From the NCBI GenBank assembly GCA_903892565.1, contig CAITIX010000016.1:1-51958 (forward strand): 51,958 nt of DNA, given 5' to 3'. Origin of the DNA: an uncultured Acidobacteriia bacterium. GTDB taxonomy: Bacteria; Acidobacteriota; Terriglobia; Bryobacterales; Bryobacteraceae. Below are positions 132-50,875 of this stretch, one piece after another. Position 1 is the first letter of the stretch. Every line of letters begins with the position of its first letter. The notes beneath the pieces are model-generated. The model was not told the DNA's origin. It worked only from the letters and a program-made list of their open reading frames with translations, and did no database searches. The position numbers were made by a program, and so were the translations under genes.

Positions 132-2114
132 TTGACAGAACGCGACAAAGCGACTCGTCTTTTGAATGAGGCGCTGGCGGCCATCGACCGACAAACCGCG
201 GCTGCCGATCGCGCGCGTCTTTCCTCGGAGCGAGCCGAGATCGAACTGGAACGCGCCGAATTGCTGGCGCTGCAAAACCGGCGTGACGACGCGCTGGCAA
301 TCTTGAATGCAGCGCTGCAAGACGAAGGCCGCGACAAAGCCGATATCTATTTGCGCATCGCTCGCGTGGATCGCGATGCGAACCCGGATCGCGCAGCGTC
401 CAGTTACGACCTCGCCATGGCCGATCTCGGAGCGCACCGGCAGAACTTGCGCCTCACCGCAATTCGCGTAGAAGCGGCGCGTGTAGCCGCGCTTCACGGC
501 CAGGCCCCGCGCGCACTGATGCTGCTCGATCAAGCATCCAAGAACATCGACGCGGAGGGTTTTGCGGAAACAGACTGGAAACTTTCCTATATCCGAGGGA
601 TGGCCTGGCAGGCGCAAGGGCAACCGAGGCAGGCCGTAGAATCCTACCTCGCAGCGACGGCGAAAATCGACCGGCTCCGCAGCACTTTGGCGCAACAAGA
701 CCGGGAGGCCTTTACGGACTCCGAATGGATGGGCGATCTCTACGCTAGGCTCGTGGCCGTGCTTTCCGCACAAGGCCGCCCGCAAGACGCCTGGCAGGCT
801 ACGGAGCGCGCCAAGGCACGTTCGTTCCTCGATTCGCTGCAAGGCAGACGCTTCAAAGACGAGATCGCACCGGAGTTCCAAGCCGAGCTAGCCGACCTGC
901 AAAAACAAATGCTCGACCTACGCGTGAGAACGGCCCCAGAGAACAGCCTAGCGCGCCGGGATACGGATCCATCGCCAGCCGTACATGCGAAGCAATTGGA
1001 AGCGTTGGAATTAAAATTCGCCCTCGCTCGTGATCGCGCGGGGCTTTCCCATTCTCGTGCGAGCCAGGCGATCGCGCCGCAGCCAGTGGCGCTCTCCGAA
1101 CTCCAATCCAGACTCAAGGCCACCGACAGAACCGGCCTGATCGTTGAGTTCGCCACGCTTGCTGATGGCTTGACGGCATTCCTGATTGGTCCATCGCTCT
1201 TCCAGCAAGTCACCTGGAAGACAGACATGGCTGCGCTAACGAACGACGTCCGTCAGTTGCGGGGCCTACTGGCCGATCGCGATTCCGGCGACGACCTGAA
1301 ACCAGTCGTTGCGCGTGTGGCCGAAGCCGTGTGGAAGCCGCTCGCCGCTAAGATTCCCGCCGGTACGCAACGCATCCTGATCGCGCCGGCGTCCTTCCTG
1401 AACTATATTCCGTTCCAGATCTTCCCTGCCCCCGGCGGCAAGCAGCTGATCGATCAATTCGTCATCTCCTACGTGCCAAGCGCCTCGACATTCGCTCTGC
1501 TAGGACAGCCTGGACCTCTGGGGACCAATACGTTTCTAGGCGCGCTCGGTTCCCTTTCTGTGGACGGGATGCCGCCACTCGAGGCGACGCTGAGCGAGGT
1601 GGATAAAATCCATCGCCTGATCCCCAAAGCTTCGGTAGCTAAAGAGGGCGAACTCACGCACAACGCCGTGCTTGCGGCGTTACAAGAACGCGATTTGGTA
1701 CACATTGCCACGCACGGAGTTTACGAACCGCAGGCGCCGCTCTTTAGCGCGCTGCTCACCAGCCCGGCGAAGAATCAGGCCTCGCGGCTGTCGCTTTACG
1801 AATTGACAGACGTGCAAATCAAAGCCAAGCTGGTGGTCCTGAGCGCCTGCGATTCCGGAATCGGCAAGCTTTCTCAGGGCGACGAAATTGCGGGCCTTAC
1901 GCGAACTTTCCTGAGCGCCGGCGCGAGAACCGTGATCTCCAGTTTATGGACCGTCGATGATGCGTCCACCGCGCTATTGATGGAAGAATTCTACAGGCAA
2001 CTCGAAAGAGGAGTCTCGCCAGCGGCAGCCCTCAGATCCGGAGCCCTGGCCGTTCGCAAGCAATACCCGAATCCCATGTTCTGGGCGCCGTTTGTTTTGA
2101 CCGGACTTCCTTAA
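132..2114 (+). CDS. TPR-CHAT domain caspase-like protease
   Basis: Predicted cysteine peptidase of the caspase-like CHAT family (clan CD). The first ~250 residues are Ala-rich helical hairpins of TPR type, a coiled region follows, and the CHAT domain fills roughly residues 360-660. The catalytic dyad is visible: His528 in the H-I-A-T-H-G motif and Cys573 in L-S-A-C-D-S-G, followed by the usual SLW-VDD and FWAPFVLTG blocks. The only start in frame after the upstream TAG is a TTG, no signal peptide is present and the protein starts inside a helical repeat, so the N-terminus is probably incomplete. It converges with the CHASE2 gene with a 9-base gap. CHAT proteins act as regulated proteases; the substrate here is unknown. 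Confidence 0.85.
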   Translation: MTERDKATRLLNEALAAIDRQTAAADRARLSSERAEIELERAELLALQNRRDDALAILNAALQDEGRDKADIYLRIARVDRDANPDRAASSYDLAMADLGAHRQNLRLTAIRVEAARVAALHGQAPRALMLLDQASKNIDAEGFAETDWKLSYIRGMAWQAQGQPRQAVESYLAATAKIDRLRSTLAQQDREAFTDSEWMGDLYARLVAVLSAQGRPQDAWQATERAKARSFLDSLQGRRFKDEIAPEFQAELADLQKQMLDLRVRTAPENSLARRDTDPSPAVHAKQLEALELKFALARDRAGLSHSRASQAIAPQPVALSELQSRLKATDRTGLIVEFATLADGLTAFLIGPSLFQQVTWKTDMAALTNDVRQLRGLLADRDSGDDLKPVVARVAEAVWKPLAAKIPAGTQRILIAPASFLNYIPFQIFPAPGGKQLIDQFVISYVPSASTFALLGQPGPLGTNTFLGALGSLSVDGMPPLEATLSEVDKIHRLIPKASVAKEGELTHNAVLAALQERDLVHIATHGVYEPQAPLFSALLTSPAKNQASRLSLYELTDVQIKAKLVVLSACDSGIGKLSQGDEIAGLTRTFLSAGARTVISSLWTVDDASTALLMEEFYRQLERGVSPAAALRSGALAVRKQYPNPMFWAPFVLTGLP

Positions 2115-2135
2115 TCTTCTTGCTTAGTCTTCTTG
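2110..2135. repeat. 13-bp tandem duplication over convergent stop codons
   Basis: Two adjacent 13-mers, CTTAATCTTCTTG and CTTAGTCTTCTTG, differ at one base. The first carries the CHAT stop (TAA) and the second carries the CHASE2 stop on the other strand. Confidence 0.8.
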
Positions 2136-3323
2136 GCGTTCCGGAACCGGGAGACCGTGAGCCATCAGTCGAGCCTTCATCTCGCGATTCTCTTTCGTGA
2201 GCGCTCGGTAATCCATGATGTGTTCGTAGGTCTGATGCGCCAGCAAACTGACCAGATACGGCATAAAGCTCAGGAACGTCGCCCCCGTGTAAAACCAAAT
2301 CCAGTTTCCAAAGAACGCATCGATTGGCCCGGTGACAAGCGTAATCGCCAGCCTCCAGCCCTTCGGGAGAAAATAGCCTACCAGGAGAATCACGTAACTC
2401 TGAATGGCCGACCAGTTGCCCAACACGCCCCCTCGCTCGGTGCGAAGTTCGTGACCGGGAAGTAGGGATTGCGCGGTTTGAGCCAGGATCACAACACCAT
2501 CCAAATAGCCCACCGGCGTGGGGTAGGCATCGCGGGCGGCGCGATAACTGCCGCCAAACAAGACCATCTTGTCCTTTAACGGGTGGGCGCCGGAGCCCCG
2601 CAACTGCAGCAACGCTCCCGCGGATAAACGATTGAAGGCGCGCGCGTCTCCCGCGTAGTTGATCAGCTTGCGGGGCACATCGCCGGGCTTTTTTCTATCC
2701 TTGAATGGCTGCTCCACAATGCAAGGATGGTTCTGAAAGGCAGCGGCCAAATTCACAGGAACGGTGGGATAGAGCCTGTCGGAACCGACGGCCGACGACG
2801 AATACTCGCGGATGACGCTGTCGTCGTCCGGCACGTAGGACGGCACGCCATAGCAATCCGACGTGGCCGCCCTGGTGGGCATGCCCCCCAGTTGAGTCTG
2901 CCCGCCAGCGGAGATCAGTTCGCGCGCCCAAACGATGGTCGTTCCCTCGTGGGAGGGCACTTCGATATCTTTCCAACCGGAGGTATCGAAATCCACACCC
3001 AAAACCTTCGGATGGTGTTCGAGAATCGCGGAAAGGATCTCGCTCATCTTTGCGGGCGCAAGAGGACTGATGCCGCCGAAGATCTGGCTGTAATCGTCGT
3101 CCGTTACCGTAACCAGAAAAATATCTTTAGACACGTCGAGCGGCTTCCCGTGAAACAAGGCGTCGAGATTTGCTTTTTCCAGATGCTGCACTACCGAGGT
3201 GGACTCAAGCGCTTTGTCGAGGTGCCCAAATCCGTAAATGAAGCAAACTCCCGTAAGAATATGGCGGATATACTTGCGCCACGAGAAAGGATGCGTCACT
3301 TTGATGGCCCTTGTATTGTGCAA
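2124..3323 (-). CDS. CHASE2 domain membrane sensor without output domain
   Basis: Extracytoplasmic sensor protein of 399 residues. A membrane segment near residues 20-35 is followed by a CHASE2-type periplasmic domain (about 45-300, including the V-L-G-V-D-F-D motif and the K-D-K-M-V-L-F-G-G block). Two or three membrane helices then follow (about 310-370) and a short charged, coiled tail. No kinase, cyclase or protease domain is attached, so output must go through a partner. The start appears to be TTG four bases after the stop of the FecR-like gene; no strong ribosome binding site is visible. In established families CHASE2 is an input domain fused to kinases, cyclases or CHAT-type modules. 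The neighbouring CHAT gene is therefore the natural candidate partner (inference). Confidence 0.8.
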   Translation of the reverse strand: MHNTRAIKVTHPFSWRKYIRHILTGVCFIYGFGHLDKALESTSVVQHLEKANLDALFHGKPLDVSKDIFLVTVTDDDYSQIFGGISPLAPAKMSEILSAILEHHPKVLGVDFDTSGWKDIEVPSHEGTTIVWARELISAGGQTQLGGMPTRAATSDCYGVPSYVPDDDSVIREYSSSAVGSDRLYPTVPVNLAAAFQNHPCIVEQPFKDRKKPGDVPRKLINYAGDARAFNRLSAGALLQLRGSGAHPLKDKMVLFGGSYRAARDAYPTPVGYLDGVVILAQTAQSLLPGHELRTERGGVLGNWSAIQSYVILLVGYFLPKGWRLAITLVTGPIDAFFGNWIWFYTGATFLSFMPYLVSLLAHQTYEHIMDYRALTKENREMKARLMAHGLPVPERQED

Positions 3324-3327
3324 TTAG

Positions 3328-4107: not shown

Positions 4108-4174
4108 GGCTTCGAATTAGTGTAACACCGGGCGGAGGCGCGGCCTTTCATAAATCGCGCGAACAAATACCAAG

Positions 4175-5749: not shown

Positions 5750-5755
5750 GTTGAG

Positions 5756-6446: not shown

Positions 6447-7943
6447 GTGACTCCGTCTCCGAACGCATCGCCCGAAACCTCGAATCCTGAACCGCAACTG
6501 AAACGCAGCCTGGGGCTGTTCGATTCCACAATGCTCGTCGCGGGGTCGATGATCGGCTCCGGCATTTTCATCGTCTCTTCGGAGATGGCGCGCAACGTCG
6601 GCAGTCCCGGGTGGTTGCTGCTTTCGTGGGTGATCACGGGAGTTCTGACGCTCACTGCGGCGCTCTCCTACGGCGAACTTGCGGCGATGATGCCGCAAGC
6701 GGGCGGCCAGTACGTTTACCTGCGCGAGGCGTTTTCTCCCCTCTGGGGATTCCTCTACGGCTGGACGCTGTTCATGGTGATCCAGACCGGCACCATTGCC
6801 GCCGTAGGCGTTGCGTTCGCCCGCTATCTCGGCATCCTGCGGCCTACCATTTCCGAAAGCAACTACATTATTCCTCCGCTGCATATCTCCACTGGCTACG
6901 CGATTTCGTTGTCTACCGCGCAGCTGGTCGCGATCCTTGTGATCGCGCTGCTCAGCTGGGCGAACTCGCGCGGGCTGCATTACGGCAAGCGCGTGCAGAA
7001 TCTGTTCACCGTGGCCAAGCTCGGATCGCTCTTCGGATTAATCGCACTGGGCTTATTCGTCGGATGGAATCGCACAGCGGCCAGCGGCAACTTCGGAGAC
7101 CTGTGGACACCCCGCGGATTTACTCCCTCGGCGCCCGGCCTCACGCCGGAGACGATGTTCGGGCTCTTGGTCGCGCTCTGCGTCGCGCAAACCGGATCGC
7201 TCTTTTCCGCCGACGCCTGGAACAACATCACGTTCACGGCGGGCGAAGTGCGCGAGCCTCGCAGGAATGTTCCGCTCTCGCTGGCCTTCGGCACGGGCAT
7301 CGTCATCGGACTTTATTTATTGGCAAATATCGCCTACCTCGCCGTGCTGCCGTTCGACAAGATCCAGACGGCCCCGCTCGATCGCGTGGCGAGCGCCATG
7401 GTGGGCGCCGTGATTCCCTCGGCCGGCGCGCAAATCATGGCGATTGGCATCATGATCTCGACGTTCGGCTGCATCAACGGCATGGTACTGGCCGGCGCGC
7501 GCGCTTTTTATGCCATGGCCAAGGATGGCGTATTTTTCCGCGGAGCGATGTCCATCAATGCGGGAGGAGTTCCCGGCAAGGCGCTCTTCATGCAGGCCGC
7601 CTGGACGATTTTCCTGGTACTGCCACGCACCTATGACGTCACAGCGAAGAAATACGGGAACCTATACGGCAATCTATTGGACTACGTGATTTCCGCCGCG
7701 CTGATCTTCTACATCCTGACGATCGCCGGCGTGTTCGTGCTGCGCAAGAAGCGTCCCGATGCCGAGCGTCCGTATCGCGCATTTGGATATCCGGTGGTTC
7801 CGATTCTGTACATCGTGGGCGCGGCGATCATCCTCGCGTTGTTGTTCGCCTACCGTCCGGCGACGACCGTCCCGGGGCTGGTCATTGTACTCATCGGTGT
7901 GCCGGTGTTTGCGCTGTTCCGACGCTACGGGGCGTCCCAATAA
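6447..7943 (+). CDS. APC-family amino acid permease
   Basis: Inner-membrane amino acid transporter, 498 residues, GTG start. About twelve hydrophobic helices are visible. The first carries the APC-superfamily signature G-S-M-I-G-S-G-I-F, and the second helix region ends in S-Y-G-E-L-A-A-M-M-P, followed by G-G-Q-Y-V-Y-L-R-E-A-F, typical of the LAT/basic amino acid antiporter branch. Substrate is unknown. A TATACT (6418-6423) 23 bases before the GTG may be its -10 element. The stop codon lies inside the first copy of a 13-bp tandem repeat, and the gene converges with the next secreted-protein gene. Confidence 0.9.
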   Translation: MTPSPNASPETSNPEPQLKRSLGLFDSTMLVAGSMIGSGIFIVSSEMARNVGSPGWLLLSWVITGVLTLTAALSYGELAAMMPQAGGQYVYLREAFSPLWGFLYGWTLFMVIQTGTIAAVGVAFARYLGILRPTISESNYIIPPLHISTGYAISLSTAQLVAILVIALLSWANSRGLHYGKRVQNLFTVAKLGSLFGLIALGLFVGWNRTAASGNFGDLWTPRGFTPSAPGLTPETMFGLLVALCVAQTGSLFSADAWNNITFTAGEVREPRRNVPLSLAFGTGIVIGLYLLANIAYLAVLPFDKIQTAPLDRVASAMVGAVIPSAGAQIMAIGIMISTFGCINGMVLAGARAFYAMAKDGVFFRGAMSINAGGVPGKALFMQAAWTIFLVLPRTYDVTAKKYGNLYGNLLDYVISAALIFYILTIAGVFVLRKKRPDAERPYRAFGYPVVPILYIVGAAIILALLFAYRPATTVPGLVIVLIGVPVFALFRRYGASQ

Positions 7944-7990
7944 ACTACCGCAATAAACTACCGCAATAAACTGCCGCGATAACTTATCGC
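7939..7990. repeat. 13-bp tandem repeat with hairpin at convergent gene ends
   Basis: Three adjacent copies of AATAAACTACCGC (the third with one change) and a degenerate fourth. The permease stop codon is in copy one. The fourth unit forms a palindrome CGCGATAA-C-TTATCGCG (7975-7991) that covers the stop of the gene on the other strand. The hairpin may act as a weak bidirectional terminator, but there is no T-tract. Confidence 0.8.
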
Positions 7991-8797: not shown

Positions 8798-8831
8798 GCA
8801 ATAGGTACGGGCTCGCAATAGATACGGCCTC
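8798..8831. repeat. 17-bp tandem duplication
   Basis: Two adjacent units, GCAATAGGTACGGGCTC and GCAATAGATACGGCCTC, two mismatches, in the divergent intergenic region between the secreted-protein gene and the metallo-hydrolase gene. Confidence 0.75.
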
Positions 8832-8854
8832 GCGATGCGAGCGGCATTCCTATG

Positions 8855-8878
8855 GCGTTTACTTCCGCGTTTACTTCA
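8855..8878. repeat. 12-bp tandem duplication carrying the -35 element
   Basis: GCGTTTACTTCC is followed directly by GCGTTTACTTCA. The second copy contains the TTTACT hexamer proposed as the -35 element of the metallo-hydrolase promoter. Confidence 0.7.
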
Positions 8879-8898
8879 ATGACTTGCCGCTGTACTAT
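8870..8898 (+). promoter_or_regulatory. sigma-70-type promoter of the MBL-fold gene
   Basis: TTTACT (8870-8875), 17-base spacer, TACTAT (8893-8898). The ATG at 8909 is ten bases after the -10 element, so the leader would be absent or only a few bases long; no Shine-Dalgarno is visible. Confidence 0.45.
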
Positions 8899-8908
8899 CT
8901 ATAGACGT

Positions 8909-10750
8909 ATGAATTCCAGGCCGTCTCTCACCTTCATGATTGCCGCCACGATAGCGGCGTTCGCGCCGGCGGCATTCGCGCAGAATTTTCCGCCGGAATC
9001 GCCTGGAGCCGATCTTTCGGGATTGTATACGCCTTCACGCATGCTCGATCCCGGCCTCGGCACCGCCGCCGGAATGCTGGTGGATTACGGCGGCATCCCC
9101 ATGAACGAAGCGAGCCGCATGTACGCGCTCACGTGGGACGCCTCGCGCATTACCGTAAAGCAGCAGCAGTGCGCCGGCTACGTGCCACCTTATATGTTCA
9201 TCGCGCCCGGCAACTACCGGATCTTCGAAGAGCGCGATCCCTTGAACCAGCAGCTCACGTCAGTCAGCGTCTACGGCCAGATTGCCGAAGGACGCCACGA
9301 GATCTTTCTCGATGGCCGTCCTCATCCCCCGGCCTGGGCTCCGCACACGTTTGTTGGATTCACCACCGGCCATTACGAAGGACAAATTCTCGCCGCCGAG
9401 ACGACTCACATTAAACGCGGCTGGATTCGCGCCCCCGGCGTCGCACAGAGCGACGAAGCCACCGTGCACGAATATTTCATCCGCCACGGCGACCGCATCA
9501 CGATTTTCTCCGTAACCACAGATCCGGTCTATCTGACCGAACCTTTCGCCAAAGTGCAGGTATTGACGCGTTATGGCAAGGATCCGAACGGCTGGCTCTA
9601 TGCTTGCGACGACAGCGAAGAAATCCAGGGCAAAGCGGCGGATCGCGTCCCCGCGCTGCAGTTCGGCGAGAATCCCTTCTTGAAGGAATACGCCGACAAA
9701 CGCCAAGTGCCATTGCTTGGTGCGCTCGGAGGACCAGAAACCTCGCGCCCGGAATTTGCGGCGAAACTGAAGACCGCGACCGAAGCCGAGGCGCTGGCGA
9801 AGATTCGTCCGTCGAACAGTCCACAGTTGGCGAGCCAGGCCAAGCCCGTGGATCCCACCGATGGCGAAATCCACGTGTGGCCCATTCAAGGAAGCGTCTC
9901 GCTGCTCATCGGCGATGGCGGCAACATGGTGGTGCAAACCGGCCCACAAGGTCCGTTCCTGGTCGATACCGGCGGAGGCAAGCGGACCGACAAGATCATC
10001 GCCGCCATTGCGAAGATGTCGCCGCGACGCATTCAATTCGTGGTCAACACCAGCGTTCATCCCGAGCACACCGGCGGCAACGTCGCGATTCACGCCGCGG
10101 GTCAGGACCCCAGCCTCTTCGGATCGTTCTTCTCCAACGGACGTCCCGACGCAGGCGTTTTCGCCACGCTGATTGCGCATCAGAACGTGCAGGATCGCAT
10201 GATATCCGAAGCCAAGATTCCTCCCGATGGCTGGCCCATCGATACCATCGTGCAGGATCGACGCCGCAAGTTCCACAACGGCGAAGGCATCGAAATCTTC
10301 TGGATGCCCAACGCCGTCACCGATGGCGACGTGATCGTGCACTTCCGTAAGTCCGACGTGATCGCCACGGGCGATATCTTCGACGATACGCGCTATCCCA
10401 TGATCGATATCGCCAAGGGCGGCAGCCTGCAGGGCGAAATCAACGCGCTGAACTTTATTCTGGACCGAACGCTCTACGAGCACGACGAAGACTTCGGCAC
10501 GCAGATCGTCCCCGGCCACGGCCACATTTGCAACGAATTCGAGGTCGCCGAATATCGCGACATGCTGGTCATCATTCGCGATCGCGTCCAGAAGATGATC
10601 GATAAAGGCGCCACGCTCGCGCAGGTGAAGGCCGCGCGGCCCACCATCGATTACGATCCGCGCTTCGGTGCGACTTCCGGCGAATGGACCACGGACAAGT
10701 TCATTGAGACCGTTTACGCCAACCTGAAGAATCCGCCGACGAAGAAATAA
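8909..10750 (+). CDS. secreted metallo-beta-lactamase-fold hydrolase with extra N-terminal domain
   Basis: A 613-residue exported protein. The chosen ATG gives a standard signal peptide ending A-A-F-A-Q; an upstream in-frame ATG at 8852 would put 19 residues of repeat-derived sequence before it. Residues ~25-290 form a secreted acidobacterial domain of unknown role, rich in beta strands. Residues ~315-590 are a metallo-beta-lactamase fold with H384-P-E-H387-T-G-G-N, a later A-T-G-D-I-F-D-D and V-P-G-H-G-H. The usual Asp after the second His is replaced by Thr, so one zinc site may be altered. Related enzymes hydrolyse thioesters, lactones or alkylsulfates; substrate unknown. Confidence 0.85.
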   Translation: MNSRPSLTFMIAATIAAFAPAAFAQNFPPESPGADLSGLYTPSRMLDPGLGTAAGMLVDYGGIPMNEASRMYALTWDASRITVKQQQCAGYVPPYMFIAPGNYRIFEERDPLNQQLTSVSVYGQIAEGRHEIFLDGRPHPPAWAPHTFVGFTTGHYEGQILAAETTHIKRGWIRAPGVAQSDEATVHEYFIRHGDRITIFSVTTDPVYLTEPFAKVQVLTRYGKDPNGWLYACDDSEEIQGKAADRVPALQFGENPFLKEYADKRQVPLLGALGGPETSRPEFAAKLKTATEAEALAKIRPSNSPQLASQAKPVDPTDGEIHVWPIQGSVSLLIGDGGNMVVQTGPQGPFLVDTGGGKRTDKIIAAIAKMSPRRIQFVVNTSVHPEHTGGNVAIHAAGQDPSLFGSFFSNGRPDAGVFATLIAHQNVQDRMISEAKIPPDGWPIDTIVQDRRRKFHNGEGIEIFWMPNAVTDGDVIVHFRKSDVIATGDIFDDTRYPMIDIAKGGSLQGEINALNFILDRTLYEHDEDFGTQIVPGHGHICNEFEVAEYRDMLVIIRDRVQKMIDKGATLAQVKAARPTIDYDPRFGATSGEWTTDKFIETVYANLKNPPTKK

Positions 10751-14341: not shown

Positions 14342-14361
14342 AATCCCAAGACTGTATTTCC

Positions 14362-19294: not shown

Positions 19295-20716
19295 CTATTT
19301 TACCGGCGGCTCAAAGCCCAGCGTCCGGGCAAAGAACCAGCACAAGAAAAACACCACTGGCGCTTGGATCACCAGTTGCAGAATGCCATAGCCCACCAGA
19401 TCGCGTGCGCGGATCTTTAAAAGACCGAGCAGCGGCAGCATCCAAAAAGGATTGATCAAATTCGGCAGCGCCTCCGCGGCATTGTATATCTGCACGACCC
19501 AGCCGAGGTGAACTTGATTCGCGATGGCCGCCTGCATCACATATGGCGCTTCCACAATCCATTTGCTTCCGCCGGAAGGGATAAACACGCCGAGCCCGGC
19601 CGAATAGAACGCCACCAGCAAAGGATAAGTATCGTGCGTGCTGAGGCGCGCAAACAGGTGCGCGAGCTTCTCGCTCAACCCCGTGCCGACGATCATCCCG
19701 AAGATCATCGCGTAAAAAGGAAATTGCAGCAGCACACCACCGGTCGCAGGAATGCAATCGGCCACAGCGCGCAGAAAACGCTTGGGACGCCAGTGCAGCA
19801 GCATCCCGAGCGTGATGAACATCAAGTTATACGTGTTGAGATCGAGTGCAGCCAGTGCGCCTTGCGGCGAAGTCCGCAGCGCTTGCACGATATAAAACCC
19901 AAGCACGCTAACGACGAGGATCGTCAGCAGAGGGCTATACTCCAGCCATTCGCCCGGCCGCGTGCGGCGTTCCAGCTCTTGTGGAGGATCGCTCAGATCC
20001 ACTCCGAAATCTTCCGCCGTGCGCGCATTTTCCGGGGTCGGCGCAGCAAAGAAACAAATCGCTACAGAGATCGTGATCAGGATCGCGGCCGTGGCCAGAC
20101 TCTGCCACAGGAATAGTGTTTGCGTCAAAGGAATGACGCCGCTGATGGCGAACAGCGCCGGAGGCATGGTGGCTTTCGTGGCCATCAACATCGCCGCGGA
20201 GGAAGAAAGCCCTAAGGCCCACGCCACTCCGATGCCGAGGTACGCGGCCAATCCCGCAGCGCGATAGTCCATGCCTTTGACGCGGCGCGCCAGCTCACGC
20301 ACCAGCAGTCCGCTGAAGATCAGGCTCATCCCCCAGGAAATCATCGACACCAGCAGCGCAAACAACGCCACAATGGCGATTGCCGCGCGGGGCGATTGCG
20401 GCAACGTCGATATTTTCTTGATGGACCGCCGCATGATGGGCGCGGATGCAACGACGTATCCGCCCACGATCACCATCACCATTTGCATCGTGAACGGGAC
20501 CAGCGTCCAGAAATTCTTGCCCGCCTGAATCGCCAGCGTTGACGCGTCTTCGCCCGCCGCCATCCCGATCAGGAACACGGTCACGACGCCGAGCAGCGCA
20601 AACACGAGTGGATCCGGGAACCAGCGCTCGCTCCAATTTGCCAGTGCGATTCCGACGCGTGCAAGACCCGTCTCTGTTGTAGTGCCGTGATCCACGGCGG
20701 CTTTTGGTTGCCCCAT
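19295..20716 (-). CDS. AtoE-type short-chain fatty acid transporter
   Basis: Inner-membrane carrier of 473 residues and about eleven to twelve helices. It matches the AtoE family: W-S-E-R-W-F-P-D-P-L-V-F-A at the N-terminus, S-W-G-M-S-L-I-F-S-G in the middle and F-I-P-S-G-G-S-K-W near residue 390. The family imports acetoacetate and short-chain acids. It is the first gene of a five-gene minus-strand operon and is divergent from scoAB, which encode the matching CoA-transferase. That makes import and activation of a beta-keto acid the most likely role of the locus. Confidence 0.9.
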   Translation of the reverse strand: MGQPKAAVDHGTTTETGLARVGIALANWSERWFPDPLVFALLGVVTVFLIGMAAGEDASTLAIQAGKNFWTLVPFTMQMVMVIVGGYVVASAPIMRRSIKKISTLPQSPRAAIAIVALFALLVSMISWGMSLIFSGLLVRELARRVKGMDYRAAGLAAYLGIGVAWALGLSSSAAMLMATKATMPPALFAISGVIPLTQTLFLWQSLATAAILITISVAICFFAAPTPENARTAEDFGVDLSDPPQELERRTRPGEWLEYSPLLTILVVSVLGFYIVQALRTSPQGALAALDLNTYNLMFITLGMLLHWRPKRFLRAVADCIPATGGVLLQFPFYAMIFGMIVGTGLSEKLAHLFARLSTHDTYPLLVAFYSAGLGVFIPSGGSKWIVEAPYVMQAAIANQVHLGWVVQIYNAAEALPNLINPFWMLPLLGLLKIRARDLVGYGILQLVIQAPVVFFLCWFFARTLGFEPPVK

Positions 20717-20745: not shown

Positions 20746-20777
20746 AGCGCCAGTTCTAAGTAGCGCCAGTTCTAAGT
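20746..20777. repeat. perfect 16-bp tandem duplication in the atoE/scoA divergent region
   Basis: AGCGCCAGTTCTAAGT occurs twice without a mismatch or gap, and a decayed third copy may follow (about 20784-20802). A TATGAT (20778-20783) abuts the second copy. The 98-base region must hold both divergent promoters. Confidence 0.85.
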
Positions 20778-31117: not shown

Positions 31118-31160
31118 TCTTTATAGGATAGCAGCGGCGCCCATGCCAGCGCGGCGGCCT

Positions 31161-31199
31161 GGACCCATGTGCTGGAACCATGTACCGGAACCAGGGCCG
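31161..31199. repeat. degenerate 13-bp tandem repeat, three units
   Basis: GGACCCATGTGCT, GGAACCATGTACC and GGAACCAGGGCCG stand side by side in the 86-base gap between the GT2 start and the luciferase-like stop codon. The array ends four bases before that stop. Confidence 0.6.
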
Positions 31200-31203: not shown

Positions 31204-32241
31204 TTAGCGCCAACCGAGAGCAGGCGCGACAGTAGTCAGAATCGCTTCCAGCACATGAGCGTTGTAAGCAACACCGAGCTGGTTGGGAACAGTCAGCAAC
31301 AGCGTGTCCGCAGCCGCGATCGCCTCGTCCTTCTTCAGCTGCTCGATCAACACATCCGGTTCCGCCGCATAACCGCGGCCGAAAATCGCCCGTGTTTTCT
31401 CGTGAAGATAGCCAATTTGGTCCTCTTCCTTCCCGCCTCGTCCGAAGTAAGCACGATCCTGATCGTCGACCAGGGCAAAGATGCTGCGGCTGACGGAAAC
31501 GCGCGGAGTGCGCGTGTGGCCGGCCTCCTTCCAGGCTTCGCGAAAGGCGCGAATTTGTGCAGCTTGTTGGATGTGGAGTGGCTCGCCGGTCTCGTCGAAC
31601 TTGAGGGTTGAGGTTTGCAAATTCATCCCGAGTTTGGCGGCCCAAACAGCTGTGGCATTCGAAGCTGCTCCCCACCAAATGCGATCGCGCAATCCTTCGG
31701 CGTACGGCTCCAATCGCAACAGCCCTGGAGGATTCGGAAACATGGGACGCGGGTTCGGCTTGGCGAAACCCTTCCCGCGCAGCAGTTCCAGAAATTCTTC
31801 GCCGTGCCGCCGGCCCATGGCGGCGTCGTCCTCGCCTTCCGCGGGGCGGTGGCCAAAGTAACGCCACCCGTCGATGACCTGCTCGGGCGAACCGCGGCTG
31901 ATTCCCAGCTGCAGGCGTCCACCGGCGATGAGATCCGCCGCGCCTGCATCCTCCGCCATGTAGTGAGGATTCTCATACCGCATGTCAATCACCGCGGTGC
32001 CGATTTCGATGTTCTTCGTCTTCGCGCCGATCGCGGCGAGCAGCGGGAACGGGGACGCGAGTTGCCGCGCGAAGTGGTGAACGCGATAGTACGCTCCGTC
32101 GATTCCCAGGCGCTCGGCCTCTACTGCGAGATCAATGGACTGCAATAGCGCGTCCTCCGCCGATTGCGTCGCCGATTGCGGCGAAGGCGTCCAATGGCCG
32201 AAGGAGAGAAAGCCAATATTCTTTCTGCCGATCTTGTTCAT
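31204..32241 (-). CDS. LLM-class flavin-dependent oxidoreductase
   Basis: Bacterial luciferase-like monooxygenase, 345 residues, TIM-barrel. Features: G-F-L-S-F-G-H-W-T-P near the N-terminus, V-H-H-F-A in the flavin site region, I-E-I-G-T-A-V-I and G-R-L-Q-L-G-I-S-R-G. It oxidises an unknown substrate with FMNH2 or F420. Near the N-terminus a 12-bp in-frame DNA duplication gives the peptide repeat Q-S-A-T-Q-S-A-E. No strong ribosome binding site precedes ATG. Confidence 0.9.
   Translation of the reverse strand: MNKIGRKNIGFLSFGHWTPSPQSATQSAEDALLQSIDLAVEAERLGIDGAYYRVHHFARQLASPFPLLAAIGAKTKNIEIGTAVIDMRYENPHYMAEDAGAADLIAGGRLQLGISRGSPEQVIDGWRYFGHRPAEGEDDAAMGRRHGEEFLELLRGKGFAKPNPRPMFPNPPGLLRLEPYAEGLRDRIWWGAASNATAVWAAKLGMNLQTSTLKFDETGEPLHIQQAAQIRAFREAWKEAGHTRTPRVSVSRSIFALVDDQDRAYFGRGGKEEDQIGYLHEKTRAIFGRGYAAEPDVLIEQLKKDEAIAAADTLLLTVPNQLGVAYNAHVLEAILTTVAPALGWR
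32159..32182. repeat. in-frame 12-bp tandem duplication inside the LLM gene
   Basis: GCCGATTGCGTC is followed by GCCGATTGCGGC. On the coding strand this duplicates four residues (Q-S-A-x) at about residues 22-29 of the oxidoreductase. Confidence 0.65.
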
Positions 32242-37350: not shown

Positions 37351-37378
37351 CTACTAATTTAGCGCTACTAATTTAACG
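37351..37378. repeat. 14-bp tandem duplication between kinase and regulator genes
   Basis: CTACTAATTTAGCG is followed by CTACTAATTTAACG. The second copy holds the last codons and stop of the kinase gene; the first copies the same stop region and abuts the start of the regulator gene (37350). Confidence 0.85.
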
Positions 37379-43799: not shown

Positions 43800-43807
43800 A
43801 CGCGCCA

Positions 43808-44656
43808 CTATCGCGCCAATCGCGCAAATCCCAAGGGACCCGTCTCAAAGCATACGCCGCTTGCTTCCGCGGTCTCGCGAATTCTCTCCCCAACGGCAGC
43901 CTGATATACCGGGTCATGCCATTTCTCAAAGCCCCGTGTTTCGCTGATGTACACGGCGGCTTCACGGGTTGTCGCTCCGCGTGGTTTGGCGACCCGCGTA
44001 TGCAACGGATCGCCAATCAAATCTCTCGCGCTGGCCTCGATGGCGAGGCGAGCCAATTCCTCTGGATCGCACGGCAACAGTGGCGCGAGCGTTACGTACG
44101 CCTCGATCCCCGCCTCTCGCAGCGCCCGAACGACGTTGAGCCGTTCTGCGATGGGCGCACAAAGCGGCTCATAAAGTTTCCGCACTTCGTCCCGATTCGT
44201 GGTGATGGAGAAACTCACGCGCACCCGCGTTTTACCGGCCAATCGCGTAATGAGTTCCAGATCCCGCAGCACCAGCGGGCCTCTCGTCTGCAGGGTAAAG
44301 ACCAACGGGGGCGTTTCGCAGAGCGCCTCGAGAATCCCCGGCATGATCCGGGCTTCGGCCTCCGCCGGTTGATAGGGGTCCACCAACGGCGAGCAATAAA
44401 TTCTTTGCGAAGCGCGCAATTCGCGGCGCAATAATTCCGCGGCGTTAGACTTGACGGTCGTGAACTGCCCCCAACGCCGCCAATCTTCGGGCTGCAATCC
44501 ACCCTGGACGCGCATCGTCGGGACGTAGCAGTACGTGCATCCAAACGTGCAATTGCGCGCCGGTGTGAGCGAGTGCGTGAACCCAGCCTCTGCGATAAAG
44601 CCGGAGGTCTTCGAAAGAATGCTCCGCGCTACAGCCTGCCGGATTCTCTGGTCCAC
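43808..44656 (-). CDS. SPL-family radical SAM protein
   Basis: A 282-residue radical S-adenosylmethionine enzyme. The [4Fe-4S] ligands are C36-T-F-G-C40-T-Y-C43-Y, and I-Y-C-S-P-L-V-D-P-Y-Q and V-R-V-S-F-S-I-T-T-N-R-D follow, as in the Rv2578c/spore-photoproduct-lyase-like group. The function of this group is not established; DNA repair is possible. GTG start, 49 bases from the thrS stop. Confidence 0.88.
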   Translation of the reverse strand: MDQRIRQAVARSILSKTSGFIAEAGFTHSLTPARNCTFGCTYCYVPTMRVQGGLQPEDWRRWGQFTTVKSNAAELLRRELRASQRIYCSPLVDPYQPAEAEARIMPGILEALCETPPLVFTLQTRGPLVLRDLELITRLAGKTRVRVSFSITTNRDEVRKLYEPLCAPIAERLNVVRALREAGIEAYVTLAPLLPCDPEELARLAIEASARDLIGDPLHTRVAKPRGATTREAAVYISETRGFEKWHDPVYQAAVGERIRETAEASGVCFETGPLGFARLAR

Positions 44657-44665
44657 GAGTCTATT

Positions 44666-44695
44666 GGAGCAGGTTAGGCTGGAGCAAGTTTCGCC
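44666..44695. repeat. degenerate 15-bp tandem duplication between thrS and the radical SAM gene
   Basis: GGAGCAGGTTAGGCT is followed by GGAGCAAGTTTCGCC; 9 of the first 10 bases agree and the rest has decayed. The units lie between the thrS stop and the GTG of the radical SAM gene. Confidence 0.45.
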
Positions 44696-44705
44696 CGCCC
44701 CCGGG

Positions 44706-46640
44706 CTATTCCACCGTGTTCTTCGTATCGACCAACTTCGTCACTTCCGCGATGAACTCTTCGAGCGGCTTTGCGCCCATGTCCGCGTGCTTGCGATGGC
44801 GAACGGATACCGCGCCGGCTTCCGCCTCGCGATCGCCCACCACCAGCATGTACGGAACCTTCTGCATCTGCGCATCGCGGATCTTCAGGTTTACTTTTTC
44901 CTTGCGATCATCCAAATGCGAGCGGAACCCGGCCGCTTCCAGGCGCGCCTGCACCTTCTGCGCGTACTCCTGTTGACGATCCGTAATCGGCATCACCACC
45001 ATCTGCACGGGAGCCAGCCACAACGGGAATGCTCCACCGTAATGCTCGATCAGGATTCCGAAGAACCGCTCAATGCTGCCGTACAACGCACGGTGCACCA
45101 TCAGAGGCTGATGCCGCTTACCGTCCTCGGCCACGAATTCGAGACCGAACTTCTTCGGCAACGTGAAGTCGAACTGCACCGTAGAGAGCTGCCACTTGCG
45201 GCCCAACGCGTCGACCAACTTCATGTCGATCTTTGGCCCATAGAACGCCGCTTCATCGGCCATCACCGGAGCCTTCAATCCAAGTCGCTCCACGGCGCGT
45301 TTCAACGCATTCTCCGCGAGCTCCCACAAATCCGCAGTCCCGTCATATTTACCGCTCTTGCCACCGTCCCACGTCGAAAGCTCAGCTTCATAGGTCTCGA
45401 AGCCGAACGTCTTCAGGACGTCAATCGCAAACTCCAGGCAGTTCACCACTTCGTTTTCGATCTGATCCGGAGTACAGAAAATGTGCGCGTCATCCTGCGT
45501 AAATCCGCGGACGCGCAATAGCCCGTGCATCACGCCGGATTTCTCGTAACGATACACCGTGCCCAGCTCGCCAAGGCGCACCGGCAGTTCACGATAGCTA
45601 CGCAGCTTGTCGCGATAGATCAAAATGTGCCCCGGGCAATTCATGGGCTTCAGCCGGTATTCGGCGTCGTCCAATTCCATGCCCGCGAACATATTTTCTT
45701 TGTAGTGGCTCAAGTGGCCGGAGGTCTTCCACAGATCCGCGCGCATCACGTGCGGCGTGTAGACCAGATCATAGCCGCGCTTCAGATACTGATCGCGCAT
45801 CCAGTCTTCGATGATGACGCGAATGCGCCCGCCTTTGGGATGGAAGAAAATCAGTCCCGGACCAGCCAGCTCTTGAATGCTGAAAAGATCGAGCTCTTGC
45901 CCCAGCTTGCGATGGTCGCGCTTCTTCGCCTCTTCCAGGCGCGCCAAATATTCGTCCTGGTCTTTCTTGCTGAACCATGCAGTACCGTAAATGCGCTGCA
46001 GCTGCGCGTTCTTCTCGTCGCCCTTCCAATAGGCCCCCGCGACCGAGAGCAACTTGAACGCTTTGATCTTCTTCGTCGAAGACACGTGCGGCCCGCGGCA
46101 GAAATCGATAAAGTGCGGTCCCAGCGTGTACTCGGAGAACACTTCGCCCGCGCGCTCCGTGATCAGCTCGCACTTCATCGGCTGATCGGAATACAGCTTC
46201 AGGCCTTCTTCCTTCTCGGTGTACTTGCGCTCATAGGGCAGATCGCGCGCCTGGATCTCCCACATCTTCTGCTCGATCTTTTCCAGATCTTCGGGCGAGA
46301 ACGCCGACGGCCGCAGGAAGTCGTAGTAAAAGCCGTTTTCAATTGGAGGCCCGATGCCAAGCTTCGTCTCGGGGAACAACTCCAGCACCGCCGCGGCCAG
46401 CAAGTGCGCCGTGGAGTGCCGATACACTTCCAGCGCCTCGGGATTCTTCGTCGTCATTAGCTGCAGCGTCGCGTTGCCGTCGAACGGCCGCGTCAAATCC
46501 CAAAACGCTCCATCCACTTTGGCGACGATGGCGTCATCGGCGAGCCTAGTGCTGATCGACTTCGCAACATCGATCGGCGCCGCGCCCTGCGGCATGGTTT
46601 TAACACTTCCGTCCGGAAGGGTGACCTGAATTTCACTCAT
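44706..46640 (-). CDS. thrS: threonine--tRNA ligase
   Basis: Class II aminoacyl-tRNA synthetase of 644 residues, full length. TGS domain 1-62, the editing domain with H-S-T-A-H-L (H-x-x-x-H) near residue 80, catalytic core from about 245 with the zinc Cys335 in M-N-C-P-G-H, and the anticodon-binding domain from about 540. It charges tRNA-Thr. It is divergent from the ECF sigma gene, 120 bases apart, and its translation start carries an unusual hairpin. Confidence 0.97.
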   Translation of the reverse strand: MSEIQVTLPDGSVKTMPQGAAPIDVAKSISTRLADDAIVAKVDGAFWDLTRPFDGNATLQLMTTKNPEALEVYRHSTAHLLAAAVLELFPETKLGIGPPIENGFYYDFLRPSAFSPEDLEKIEQKMWEIQARDLPYERKYTEKEEGLKLYSDQPMKCELITERAGEVFSEYTLGPHFIDFCRGPHVSSTKKIKAFKLLSVAGAYWKGDEKNAQLQRIYGTAWFSKKDQDEYLARLEEAKKRDHRKLGQELDLFSIQELAGPGLIFFHPKGGRIRVIIEDWMRDQYLKRGYDLVYTPHVMRADLWKTSGHLSHYKENMFAGMELDDAEYRLKPMNCPGHILIYRDKLRSYRELPVRLGELGTVYRYEKSGVMHGLLRVRGFTQDDAHIFCTPDQIENEVVNCLEFAIDVLKTFGFETYEAELSTWDGGKSGKYDGTADLWELAENALKRAVERLGLKAPVMADEAAFYGPKIDMKLVDALGRKWQLSTVQFDFTLPKKFGLEFVAEDGKRHQPLMVHRALYGSIERFFGILIEHYGGAFPLWLAPVQMVVMPITDRQQEYAQKVQARLEAAGFRSHLDDRKEKVNLKIRDAQMQKVPYMLVVGDREAEAGAVSVRHRKHADMGAKPLEEFIAEVTKLVDTKNTVE

Positions 46641-46670
46641 GGGTAACTCTCAGGTTACCAAACTGCCTCC
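46641..46670 (-). promoter_or_regulatory. thrS ribosome binding site split from its ATG by a perfect hairpin
   Basis: On the minus strand GGAGG (46670-46666), six bases, GGTAAC-CTGAGA-GTTACC (46659-46642), one base, ATG (46640). The linear spacing of 25 bases is too long, but folding the 18-base hairpin leaves seven bases, the optimum. It could be a regulatory site or a simple structural bridge. Confidence 0.6.
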
Positions 46671-46760
46671 GCTTCGGACGTTCGGCAACGCGCCAAACCA
46701 ATTTCACATTTTGCCTGCATCCCGCGCGCCGCCGCCACATCATATATATTTGGTACTAGC

Positions 46761-47396: not shown

Positions 47397-47628
47397 ACAA
47401 TTCCTGAAGGAACTGAACGACTATCTGGATCCGAACACCGACCCGGTGATGAAGACCCACTTGGAATCGCATGTTTCCGAGTGCATGAATTGCTTCGTGA
47501 TTGTCGACACCACGCGCAAGACTCTGCAAGTCTACAAGGGAATGGAGCCTCAGGAGATTCCGGAGGATGTCAAAGCCCGGCTATGGAAAGCGCTCGAACG
47601 AAAGATGGTTGCCGAAGGCACCTCTTAG
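47383..47628 (+). CDS. zinc-finger anti-sigma factor (ZAS/RsrA-like)
   Basis: An 81-residue cytosolic protein with the ZAS motif H30-V-S-E-C34-M-N-C37 and an upstream Cys4 as the fourth zinc ligand. It would bind the adjacent ECF factor and release it on thiol oxidation or another signal. There is no membrane segment. Its stop overlaps the stop of the MFS gene on the other strand by four bases (TTAG). Confidence 0.88.
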   Translation: MVTCKQFLKELNDYLDPNTDPVMKTHLESHVSECMNCFVIVDTTRKTLQVYKGMEPQEIPEDVKARLWKALERKMVAEGTS

Positions 47629-49001: not shown

Positions 49002-49118
49002 TTCAATCCCCGGAAAAGACAGACTCCATCATACTTTATCTAGCTTGATCAGAGTCGCGTTTTACTCTCAGAGCAGACCGCTATCCCCAACAAACCTGGA
49101 CTGGCTGCTTTAGACGAA

Positions 49119-50096
49119 CTAGGCGAGATCGAGCCCGAACAGCTTTCCGGCGTTCGTCCTTCCGATCTTCAGGCGATCCGCCTCGGCGATGCTGGCCGTG
49201 TCGAACCACTCGCAGCCCTCTTGCACATCCTCGAACGGCCAATCGACGCTGAACAAAATTCGGTCCGTGCTCACTTCTCCCATGGCATCAAGCAGCGTTT
49301 GCGTTCGAAAATTGCCGCTCGTGGTCAGGTAAATGTTATTGCGCAGATACTCGCCCAGCGGCCGCTTGGCCGGGATCCCTCGCGGCGTTTTGCTGAGCCT
49401 GTGATCCACGCGCCAGATGTCGTAAGGGATGCGCTCACCCAAATGCCCCAGAATCAGCGTCAGCTTCGGATACCGGTCAAAAATCCCGGAAGCCATCAGC
49501 CGCAACGCGTGGATCGACGTTTCCACCGCGAACGACCATGCGGATCCCAGAAACCACGGATGGCCTTCGTAGTGTTGCGATCGGCTCGCCAGCGGCTCTC
49601 TCGGATGCAAGTAAAAAGGCACCCCGAGGCGCTCCACCGTTGCCCAGAACGCTTCATATTCAGGCAGGTCGAAATACACCGCCGAATCCTCGACGTCGCG
49701 TTGCGTAAACCCGTTCACCAGCGCGCCTTTGAATCCAAGCTCGCGCACGCAGCGCTCTAATTCACGAGCCGCCGCTTCTGGATCTTGCATCGGCAACGCC
49801 GCGAAGCCTTGAAAGCGCTTGGGATTTTTCGCCACTTGCTCCGCCAGATAATCGTTCGCTTTGCGCGCGAGCACAATCGCCTTGCGCGTATCGGGCACCG
49901 CTTGAATCGCCACGGCGTTGAGCGATAGGATCATCATCTCGATGCCGTACTTGTCCATTTCGCCAAGTCTGGTCTCGTGGATATCCACCAGCCGATGCCG
50001 CATCGTGGGCCAAACATCCGGCGTGAAATATCGCTCGGAATCGTCGATGGTATCCGGCAGCGCGAAGTGCTCTTCGAGTGCGATCTTGCCCGTCAT
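49119..50096 (-). CDS. gamma-resorcylate decarboxylase-like amidohydrolase
   Basis: Metal-dependent, non-oxidative aryl-acid decarboxylase, 325 residues. With the ATG at 50096 the N-terminus G-K-I-A-L-E-E-H-F lines up with gamma-resorcylate decarboxylase, and key residues keep its numbering: Glu8, His10, His164 (Y-L-H-P) and His218 (L-G-H-L-G-E), with Asp285 (V-D-W-P-F) two residues off. It probably converts a hydroxybenzoate such as 2,6-dihydroxybenzoate to the phenol, or the reverse. An ATG twelve codons upstream lies in a tandem repeat and is rejected. Confidence 0.88.
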   Translation of the reverse strand: MTGKIALEEHFALPDTIDDSERYFTPDVWPTMRHRLVDIHETRLGEMDKYGIEMMILSLNAVAIQAVPDTRKAIVLARKANDYLAEQVAKNPKRFQGFAALPMQDPEAAARELERCVRELGFKGALVNGFTQRDVEDSAVYFDLPEYEAFWATVERLGVPFYLHPREPLASRSQHYEGHPWFLGSAWSFAVETSIHALRLMASGIFDRYPKLTLILGHLGERIPYDIWRVDHRLSKTPRGIPAKRPLGEYLRNNIYLTTSGNFRTQTLLDAMGEVSTDRILFSVDWPFEDVQEGCEWFDTASIAEADRLKIGRTNAGKLFGLDLA

Positions 50097-50150
50097 TGTC
50101 TGATAAACCCCATCATTGCCTGATAGACCCATTCATTCGTTATAAACCCC
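50092..50150. repeat. triplicated ~20-bp unit, each with an ATG, at a gene junction
   Basis: Three units of 20, 19 and 20 bases. On the minus strand they read G-G-G-G/T-T/C-T-A-T plus a CA-rich part and an ATG. The first unit encodes the end of the NTF2-like gene (G-V-Y-N-E-stop), the last provides the start codon of the decarboxylase gene, and the middle unit also has an ATG. Confidence 0.8.
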
Positions 50151-50753
50151 TTCGATCGACTTCCCCGCCAGCCAGTCGCGCCCGTACCCGTAGAGCGCTT
50201 GCACCTCAGGACCTTTCAGCCCCGGCATATTGGTCTTTAATTGGAAGCCAATGCACGTTTGCAGATACGCCAAGTGGCGATATCCCACCGGGAACTGCGC
50301 GAGCAGCTTCGCATCCAGCTCCAGCTTCGCCGCCGGATCCACCGGATCCATGCGATCCTTTTCGTAAATCAAACGGCGCAGGACGAAGCCCCAGCGTCCA
50401 TTGCGCTTTTCGAGGAAATCGTAAAAACGGCCCGTGCAAACCACGTCGCAGGATACGCCGTGAACCTCGGCCCGCTGCGTGATCGTCATCTTGGTTTGCG
50501 AAATCGCACGACTGCCTGAAAGATCCATGGTCTGTCCGCCCAAAAAATGAAGGATGCTGACGCCATTCTCGAAGCCCTTGGAACTCGCCGCGATGAACTC
50601 ATCCGCCGAGCCCTGGAACCACGTGGCATACATCTTGCCATCGTCGTGCCACACCGTGCGGAAGCGCTCCCACTCGCCGGCATCACGCCACAATACCCAA
50701 TTTTCAATGAGCTCGCGGATGGCGAGGCGGTCCAGAAGTGCGGAATCTTTCAT
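50133..50753 (-). CDS. NTF2/SnoaL-like protein
   Basis: A 206-residue cytosolic protein with an N-terminal NTF2-like cone fold: a helical start (L-L-D-R-L-A-I-R-E-L-I-E-N-W-V-L-W-R-D-A-G-E-W-E-R), then W-H-D-D-G-K-M-Y and a beta-sheet with H-F-L-G-G and G-R-F-Y-D-F-L-E-K-R-N-G-R-W. Such proteins are often small-molecule isomerases, dehydratases or ring-hydroxylating-dioxygenase beta-like subunits. Its gene lies between the regulator and the decarboxylase. Role unknown. Confidence 0.82.
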   Translation of the reverse strand: MKDSALLDRLAIRELIENWVLWRDAGEWERFRTVWHDDGKMYATWFQGSADEFIAASSKGFENGVSILHFLGGQTMDLSGSRAISQTKMTITQRAEVHGVSCDVVCTGRFYDFLEKRNGRWGFVLRRLIYEKDRMDPVDPAAKLELDAKLLAQFPVGYRHLAYLQTCIGFQLKTNMPGLKGPEVQALYGYGRDWLAGKSIEGVYNE

Positions 50754-50839
50754 GGTTGTCCCAATAGCAATGCGGCAGGTTCGTCACAAAGCCGAACGGC
50801 CGCAGCCACTGGAATTCTACTGGTTAGCTGGTGCTTCGC

Positions 50840-50875
50840 GCAACCCGCGCGGCAACCCGCGCAGCAACTCGTGCT
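50840..50875. repeat. 12-bp tandem repeat, three units, behind the GntR stop
   Basis: GCAACCCGCGCG, GCAACCCGCGCA and GCAACTCGTGCT in direct succession, starting four bases beyond the GntR stop codon (50879) and lying before the NTF2-like gene. Confidence 0.8.

What the first reader, a model, noticed from the sequence alone, without database searches (positions are those of the whole stretch)
2110..50875. Short tandem duplications recur at gene boundaries across the window
At nine or more places, adjacent units of 12-20 bp in two or three copies sit at or within tens of bases of a start or stop codon: 2110-2135, 7939-7990, 8798-8831, 8855-8878, 20746-20777, 31161-31199, 37351-37378, 44666-44695, 50092-50150 and 50840-50875. 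Only one clear example (32159-32182) is inside a gene, and it is in frame. Unit sequences are unrelated, so this is not a repeat family but a repeated process: local duplication by slippage or repair that survives where coding is not harmed, in varying stages of decay. The density looks much higher than expected for bacterial intergenic DNA.
Basis: seen in the sequence. Interest (0 to 1): 0.72.

Follow-up and report, generated by a model that had tools for sequence, protein, structure and literature searches.

The report
Lineage-specific 12-20 bp tandem duplications
One soil-type acidobacterium has peppered the DNA between its genes with side-by-side copies of 12-20 letters, far more than its relatives or chance, which points to a size-limited duplication error that non-coding DNA tolerates.

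Summary
The window has 9 tandem duplications in 4.6-5 kb of intergenic DNA (8 if one start codon is moved) against 0.05 in shuffles. The rest of a 16% sample of its genome, G000, has 45 in 78 kb; thirteen same-genus genomes have 3 in 83 kb (18-fold with the window, p 4e-13). In G000 genes 43 of 43 have periods divisible by three, which speaks against an assembly artefact and for selection against frameshifts. The excess over congeners lies at 12-18 bp, with a few longer arrays; 8-11 bp is at congener level. Copies are head to tail, mostly with little extra matching at the ends, belong to no repeat family and range from identical to strongly decayed. They lie nearer to gene ends than random placement gives but hardly ever overlap a start codon. 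Sister G022 has a firm, different array at one of four compared junctions and a weak one at another. I conclude: a real, lineage-specific, size-limited, largely homology-independent duplication process filtered by selection. The enzymology is inferred: filled-in staggered breaks would fit the junctions, but no Ku or LigD was found in G000 (20 and 21 of 22 congeners match), and most sampled congeners that have Ku show few or no duplications.

The parts
2106..2135 (.). 13-bp unit, 2.3 copies, over the stop codon of the + gene 132-2114 and the facing stop of the - gene 2124-3323; the two copies carry TAA and TAG
   Evidence: TRF; sequence; scan
7938..7990 (.). 13-bp unit, 3.5 copies plus a decayed fourth, starting in the last codons of the transporter gene 6447-7943 and filling the spacer to the facing stop at 7984; no array after the orthologous transporter in G022 and G011, where the next gene differs
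   Evidence: TRF
8798..8833 (.). 17-bp unit, 2.1 copies, divergent spacer
   Evidence: TRF
8855..8877 (.). 12-bp unit, 1.9 copies, upstream of the called start 8936; in frame if translation starts at 8852
   Evidence: TRF; ORF list
20746..20777 (.). 16-bp unit, two identical copies, no extra match at either end, divergent spacer
   Evidence: TRF
31159..31197 (.). 13-bp unit, 2.7 copies by TRF (about 3 by reading), between the stop of 31204-32241 (-) and the start of 30134-31117 (-)
   Evidence: TRF
32158..32181 (-). 12-bp unit, 2 copies, in frame near the N-terminus of gene 31204-32241 (-)
   Evidence: TRF; ORF list
37351..37378 (.). 14-bp unit, 2 copies (13 of 14), over the stop of the histidine-kinase-like gene 37368-38606 (-) and up to the ATG of the response-regulator-like gene 36007-37350 (-); spacer to the conserved ATG 23 nt, 9 nt without one copy; median in 54 related loci 6, five of them longer than 23
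   Evidence: (gene names from reading the translations)
44666..44695 (.). 15-bp pair, 11 of 15 identical, between 44706-46640 (-) and 43808-44656 (-); marginal
   Evidence: chance level
50089..50153 (.). 19-20-bp unit, 3.3 copies, over the stop of 50133-50753 (-) and start of 49119-50132 (-); the copies carry ATG codons; the G022 ortholog has a different 19-bp unit in 4 copies
   Evidence: TRF; TRF of G022
50840..50868 (.). 12-bp unit, 2.4 copies (a decayed third to 50875 by reading), before the stop of 50879-51628 (-); none at the corresponding places in G022 and G011, whose upstream genes differ
   Evidence: TRF
19686..19709 (-). 12-bp unit, 2 copies, inside gene 19295-20716, period a multiple of 3
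   Evidence: TRF
50304..50341 (-). 18-bp unit, 2.1 copies (80%), inside gene 50133-50753, period a multiple of 3
   Evidence: TRF

Best explanation
The arrays are the standing product of a mutational process that copies a random stretch of about 12-20 bp head to tail. It has been much more productive in the lineage of this genome (G000, perhaps with its sister G022) than in most sampled members of its genus. SHOWN: the excess over shuffles and congeners, its start at 12 bp, the small extra matching at most junctions, the frame filter in genes, the rarity of overlap with start codons, decay to strongly diverged copies. INFERRED: each event starts with a staggered break or paired nicks on opposite strands 12-20 nt apart (for example overlapping repair patches); the single-stranded ends are filled in and joined end to end, which writes the overhang twice without needing matching sequence. 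Extra copies arise later by slippage between the two. Events in genes are mostly lost to selection unless a multiple of three; events over stop codons can be kept because the first copy still ends the gene. Perfect copies probably often collapse again, so survivors look old. My confidence is about 0.9 for a real lineage-specific process filtered by selection, about 0.35 for the staggered-end step.
For: Rate: 54 intergenic/boundary events in 83.1 kb against 3 in 82.7 kb of 13 congeners, ratio 18, p 4e-13; without the window 45 in 78.4 kb, ratio 16. Shuffles give 0.05 (window) and 0.1 (rest of the first sample). Size, without any gene caller, at most one mismatch: 8-11 bp 333 in 728 kb of G000 against 285 in 600 kb of congeners (ratio 0.96); 12-18 bp 73 against 16 (3.8); 13-18 bp 40 against 4 (8.2). 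Junctions: of 48 intergenic events of 12-21 bp, 28 were taken as two-copy (self-match excess of at most 4 bp); 23 of the 28 have 2 or fewer extra matching bases, and the bases at the breakpoints show no obvious preference. Tandem: of exact repeats of 12 bp or more, 19 adjacent and 13 with gaps of 2-19 bp in G000; congeners 4 adjacent and 9 with gaps of 4-110. Frame: 43 of 43 coding events are multiples of 3, 20 of 46 intergenic. Decay. Sister: G022 has a different 19-bp unit in 4 copies at the junction orthologous to 50089 and groups with G000 in a response-regulator tree (85/92).
Against: For the staggered-end step: no Ku and no LigD polymerase domain found in G000, while 20 and 21 of 22 congeners match (LigD over the cut-off in 20); most sampled congeners with Ku show few or no duplications, so it is neither clearly necessary nor sufficient. 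Ku and LigD lie close together in most congeners, so one assembly gap could hide both. The lower size edge rests on modest numbers (exact 10-11 bp: 3 in G000, 4 in congeners; exact 12-18 bp: 25 and 4), and both groups have a small excess over shuffles at 9-11 bp. The upper edge is not clean: G000 has four arrays of 31-42 bp against none in congeners, two of them touching contig ends or near. Five of the 28 two-copy events have 3-4 bp of extra match, the other 20 of 48 events were not judged, and 16 of 26 exact intergenic runs exceed their unit by 3 bp or more, by position nearly all in arrays of more than two copies. In congeners only 7 of 11 coding events are multiples of three, so the frame filter is clean only in G000; the four others (10-13 bp) are at my score threshold. 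The sample is 16% of the genome with a home-made gene caller; the window is denser than the rest (p 0.003), as expected of a window picked by eye. G022 rests on about 1 kb of intergenic DNA: one firm array, two weak ones that TRF does not list, none at two other compared places. Sixteen further events in 58 kb of 28 family-level loci plus one of G005 show the trait is not unique to this lineage.
Confidence: 0.6

Rival explanations
1. Ordinary replication slippage or flap religation (recalled: the class seen in flap-nuclease mutants) at short pre-existing repeats, raised by a repair defect of the lineage.
For: Known source of short tandem duplications (recalled); third and fourth copies (7938, 50089) need slippage at least as a second step; 5 of 28 two-copy events show 3-4 bp of extra match.
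Against: No G000-specific excess at 8-11 bp, where slippage should be commoner; 4-6 bp at shuffle level; junction matches mostly 0-2 bp. Of the families tested G000 has full-length polA, mutS1 and recJ.
Confidence: 0.3
2. Reduced loss rather than increased gain: all lineages make such duplications, but collapse of perfect 12-20 bp tandem copies is inefficient in this one.
For: Congeners have a small excess of the same sizes over shuffles, as have several family-level loci; equal density at 8-11 bp; more decayed than perfect copies.
Against: Of the five families looked at (Ku, LigD, polA, mutS1, recJ) none was found missing in both G000 and G022 (polA was not searched in G022); even birth would leave many 8-11 bp duplications everywhere, and few are seen.
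Confidence: 0.2
3. Assembly artefact: contig ends overlapping by less than the k-mer were joined without merging.
For: G000 is a 454-contig assembly; unmerged overlaps would give short tandem copies.
Against: 43 of 43 coding events keep frame; most copies differ by one or more bases; several arrays have 3 or more copies; another assembly, G022, has an array of the same kind.
Confidence: 0.03
4. The units are functional (operators, translation signals) kept in tandem by selection.
For: Concentration near gene ends; the 50089 junction carries arrays in both G000 and G022.
Against: Units are unrelated to each other and differ between G000 and G022 at the same junction; they decay; the same sizes occur in frame inside genes.
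Confidence: 0.05

Closest known systems
Small tandem duplications formed by fill-in at staggered breaks and end joining (mouse and human cells, PMC8355091, passages seen; rice, Vaughn and Bennetzen 2014, seen only as a title in its reference list)
   Same: Head-to-tail copies of a short stretch, mainly by end joining that uses little microhomology
   Different: Those depend strongly on Ku and were made at overhangs of 43-50 nt; here 12-20 bp in a bacterium whose assembly shows no Ku or LigD
Slippage-born microsatellites and minisatellites of bacteria (recalled)
   Same: Tandem, some arrays of 3 or more copies
   Different: No lineage-specific excess below 12 bp, many with two copies only, little junction homology
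High indel share of spontaneous mutation in Acidobacterium capsulatum (PMC8717266, passages seen)
   Same: Same phylum; indels over 26% of mutations, over-represented in non-coding DNA
   Different: That paper reports 31 indels of 1-50 bp; the word duplication does not occur in its main text
REP/MITE-type intergenic repeat families (recalled)
   Same: Intergenic, short
   Different: Units here are unrelated and not dispersed

Membership tests
Slippage at pre-existing short repeats | Several bp of matching sequence at the ends of the duplicated unit | tested here: not met
   23 of 28 events taken as two-copy have 2 or fewer extra matching bases. 10 of 26 exact intergenic runs have 0-2; of the 16 with 3 or more, all but one lie by position in arrays of more than two copies
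Slippage at pre-existing short repeats | Frequency falls with unit length | tested here: not met
   G000/congener ratio 0.96 at 8-11 bp, 3.8 at 12-18, 8.2 at 13-18; counts modest
Staggered-end fill-in and NHEJ | Head-to-tail copy without required homology | tested here: met
Staggered-end fill-in and NHEJ | Ku and LigD present | tested here: not met
   No match in G000 (completeness 95.6%, so a gap is possible); G022 has both
Dispersed repeat family (REP, MITE) | Unit recurs elsewhere in the genome | tested here: not met
   43 of 46 events do not exceed the 95th percentile of random intergenic DNA, within the sampled 16-17% of the genome
Minisatellite/VNTR | Copy number varies among strains | not testable with these tools
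Local duplication surviving where coding is unharmed (reader) | Coding events keep frame, intergenic events need not | tested here: met
   G000: 43 of 43 against 20 of 46 multiples of three; in congeners 7 of 11 coding events

The most novel reading that the evidence does not exclude
A homology-independent duplication activity with a size gate of about 12-20 bp operates in the G000 lineage, probably in its sister G022, and again in some other Bryobacteraceae, and feeds the growth of intergenic DNA. The size gate would reflect the footprint of a specific break or repair intermediate, such as an excision patch of about 12-13 nt (size recalled), so these genomes would record the activity of one repair pathway in bacteria known from assembled sequence.
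Probability: 0.27. Interest if true: 0.75.

Novelty: new variant of a known kind. Interest (0 to 1): 0.55.

Why it matters
Tandem duplication is a known class of short insertion. A bacterial lineage with more than ten times the density of its congeners, a narrow size class and a clean frame filter gives a natural comparison for finding which repair step makes or removes such duplications, and a measurable route by which spacers, stop codon contexts and in-frame peptide repeats are born. It also warns that intergenic tandem pairs in such genomes are not by themselves signs of regulation.

Tried and rejected
Chance: rejected by shuffles. Assembly artefact: made unlikely by reading frame and decay. 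Repeat family: rejected. A sequence-specific nuclease: no obvious base preference at 28 breakpoints. Loss of polA, mutS1 or recJ in G000: all present. Loss of Ku/LigD as the cause: not found in G000 but present in G022, which has at least one array; Ku was not found in G003 either, which shows 0 events in 4.0 kb where about 2.6 would be expected at G000's rate. Boundaries of every kind: start codons are hardly ever overlapped. Junction comparison at 7938 and 50840: neighbouring genes differ in G022 and G011, no arrays there. The paper searches listed no paper whose title or abstract start I recognised as describing this in bacteria; only passages of PMC8355091 and PMC8717266 were read, so absence from print is not claimed. 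Dropped before counts: units that are themselves repeats of 1-6 bp, stretches of N, and events within 25 bp of contig ends; one search counts periods 10-40, periods 12-21. My scan misses weak pairs such as 37351. Loci of other phyla (44 loci, 659 kb) gave 20 events called intergenic, but the gene model was that of G000 and their intergenic share is unreliable; without gene calls they have 24 events of 12-18 bp and the 36 Bryobacteraceae loci 20 in 667 kb.
Full report
WHAT WAS CHECKED. The window is contig C16 of a 4.63 Mb, 454-contig assembly, G000, 58.5% G+C. Named contigs of its nearest relatives bear titles such as Candidatus Sulfopaludibacter, Bryobacterales and Bryobacteraceae, so it belongs with the Bryobacteraceae (Acidobacteriota); this is inferred from record titles. 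The 37351 pair is real (13 of 14) though TRF and my scan missed it.

MORE THAN CHANCE. Scanning for periods 10-40, 9 events are intergenic or span a gene end in the window and none is coding; 20 shuffles that keep dinucleotides between genes and proteins within genes give a mean of 0.05. One of the nine, 32158, lies in a gene if the longer start is used. In the rest of the first sample there are 27 such events against 0.1, and 17 coding events against 8.6 in shuffles that keep the proteins.

LINEAGE-SPECIFIC. With N-stretches removed (723,659 bases sampled, 55,416 of them N), G000 outside the window has 45 events in 78.4 kb of intergenic DNA (0.57 per kb, 95% 0.42-0.77) and the window 9 in 4.6 kb. 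Thirteen same-genus genomes together have 3 in 82.7 kb, two of them in G005. G030 (same family) and G040 (same order) have none in 26.8 and 33.7 kb, and G060 (same class) 2 in 25.1 kb. The G000/genus ratio is 18 (p 4e-13). Twenty-eight family-level loci plus one of G005 hold 16 events in 58 kb, in 7 of 29 loci where 11.6 would be expected if evenly spread (p 0.0016), so other lineages appear to have the trait and most do not show it.

SIZE CLASS. Without using any gene call and allowing one mismatch, G000 and congeners are alike at 8-11 bp (ratio 0.96) and differ at 12-18 bp (73 against 16 events; ratio 3.8) and 13-18 bp (40 against 4; ratio 8.2; ratios). Against shuffles, intergenic DNA of both G000 and congeners has a small excess at 9-11 bp, and G000 alone a large one from 12 bp on, fading by 18-20 bp. 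At 21-30 bp G000 and congeners are nearly alike, but G000 has four arrays of 31-42 bp and congeners none. G000 also has an excess at 7 bp (13 against 5.2), at least partly from a heptamer array. The lower edge is supported but rests on small counts.

JUNCTIONS. Of 48 intergenic events of 12-21 bp, 28 were classed as two-copy (excess self-match of at most 4 bp); 23 of these have 2 or fewer extra matching bases, 5 have 3-4, and the bases around the breakpoints show no obvious preference. The other 20 were not judged this way. Exact repeats of 12 bp or more are adjacent or nearly so in G000 (19 adjacent, 13 with gaps of 2-19 bp), while congeners have 4 adjacent and 9 with gaps of 4-110 bp. Units are not dispersed repeats: 3 of 46 exceed the random 95th percentile, two of them with a GACTCCT-type heptamer array.

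SELECTION. In G000 coding DNA 43 of 43 events have periods divisible by three, against 20 of 46 between genes. In congeners it is 7 of 11; the four exceptions have periods 10-13 and scores of 11-13, near the threshold of 11. Gene ends: for 41 wholly intergenic events, 23 lie within 50 bp of a gene end against 15.3 (sd 3.3) in random placement, 8 within 20 bp of a stop (3.9) and 10 within 20 bp of a start (5.1). For 50 events at least 30% intergenic, 17 lie within 20 bp of a stop (9.6, sd 2.4), 10 overlap a stop (6.0, sd 2.4), 11 lie within 20 bp of a start (11.8) and none overlaps a start (6.8, sd 2.6); of all 52 one does, by position the 50089 array. Starts come from my gene caller and are uncertain. 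Duplicating a stop leaves the protein intact; duplicating a start region disturbs initiation.

DECAY. For units of 14-16 bp the numbers with 0, 1, 2, 3 and 4 mismatches are 3, 8, 15, 23 and 40, expected 0, 0, 0.1, 3.2 and 21.6; congeners have 1, 0, 3, 3 and 30, expected 0, 0, 0.1, 3.5 and 17.6. Under steady production roughly equal numbers per class would be expected; the shortage of perfect copies suggests that perfect copies collapse, or that production has slowed.

ORTHOLOGOUS JUNCTIONS. At the kinase-regulator junction (37351) the G000 spacer is 23 nt, 9 without one copy; the median of 54 other loci (some repeat a genome) is 6, and five of them exceed 23. The sister G022 has one of the long spacers (52 nt) with a weak, decayed 18-bp pair of another sequence (not listed by TRF). 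At 50089 G022 has four copies of a different 19-bp unit, 91% matches. At 7938 and 50840 G022 and G011 have no array, with changed neighbours. G022 groups with G000 in a tree of the regulator (85/92), where the G000 branch is long.

MECHANISM. polA, mutS1 and recJ are present in G000. Ku was not found in G000 and is found in 20 of 22 congeners; ligD_pol not found, and found in 21 of 22, over the cut-off in 20. G022 has both. The junctions fit filling-in and end-to-end joining of staggered breaks, known to make small tandem duplications in mammalian cells in a largely Ku-dependent way (PMC8355091, passages). The missing Ku and LigD are the main objection; a loss after most duplications arose would agree with the shortage of young copies, but that is speculation. 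Acidobacterium capsulatum, in the same phylum, has an unusually high share of indels (over 26% of mutations) with an excess in non-coding DNA (PMC8717266, passages).

VERDICT. A real, lineage-specific mutational signature; a new variant of a known kind of mutation; enzymology open.

Noticed in passing
G000 whole assembly: No Ku and no LigD polymerase domain found, while 20 and 21 of 22 congeners match.
   Followed up: partly
G000 whole assembly: A MutS-like protein (hits near positions 530-766 of the mutS1 model, frames mostly about 600 aa) is listed by my reading for 22 of 22 congeners but not for G000; G022, G010 and the incomplete G002 in turn show no full mutS1 match.
   Followed up: no
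L058:1-34, L215:1-137: GACTCCT-type heptamer arrays at contig ends of G000; an excess of 7-bp periods in G000 intergenic DNA (13 against 5.2).
   Followed up: no
window 36007-37350: The G000 branch in the regulator tree is among the longest in the genus (0.18, as is G007), perhaps faster evolution.
   Followed up: no
window 8852-8935: The 12-bp duplication at 8855 lies next to ATG codons in a possible N-terminal extension of the 8936 gene; start uncertain.
   Followed up: no
L128, L131, L141, L144: Other Bryobacteraceae loci with 2-3 intergenic duplications of 12-18 bp in about 21 kb each.
   Followed up: partly
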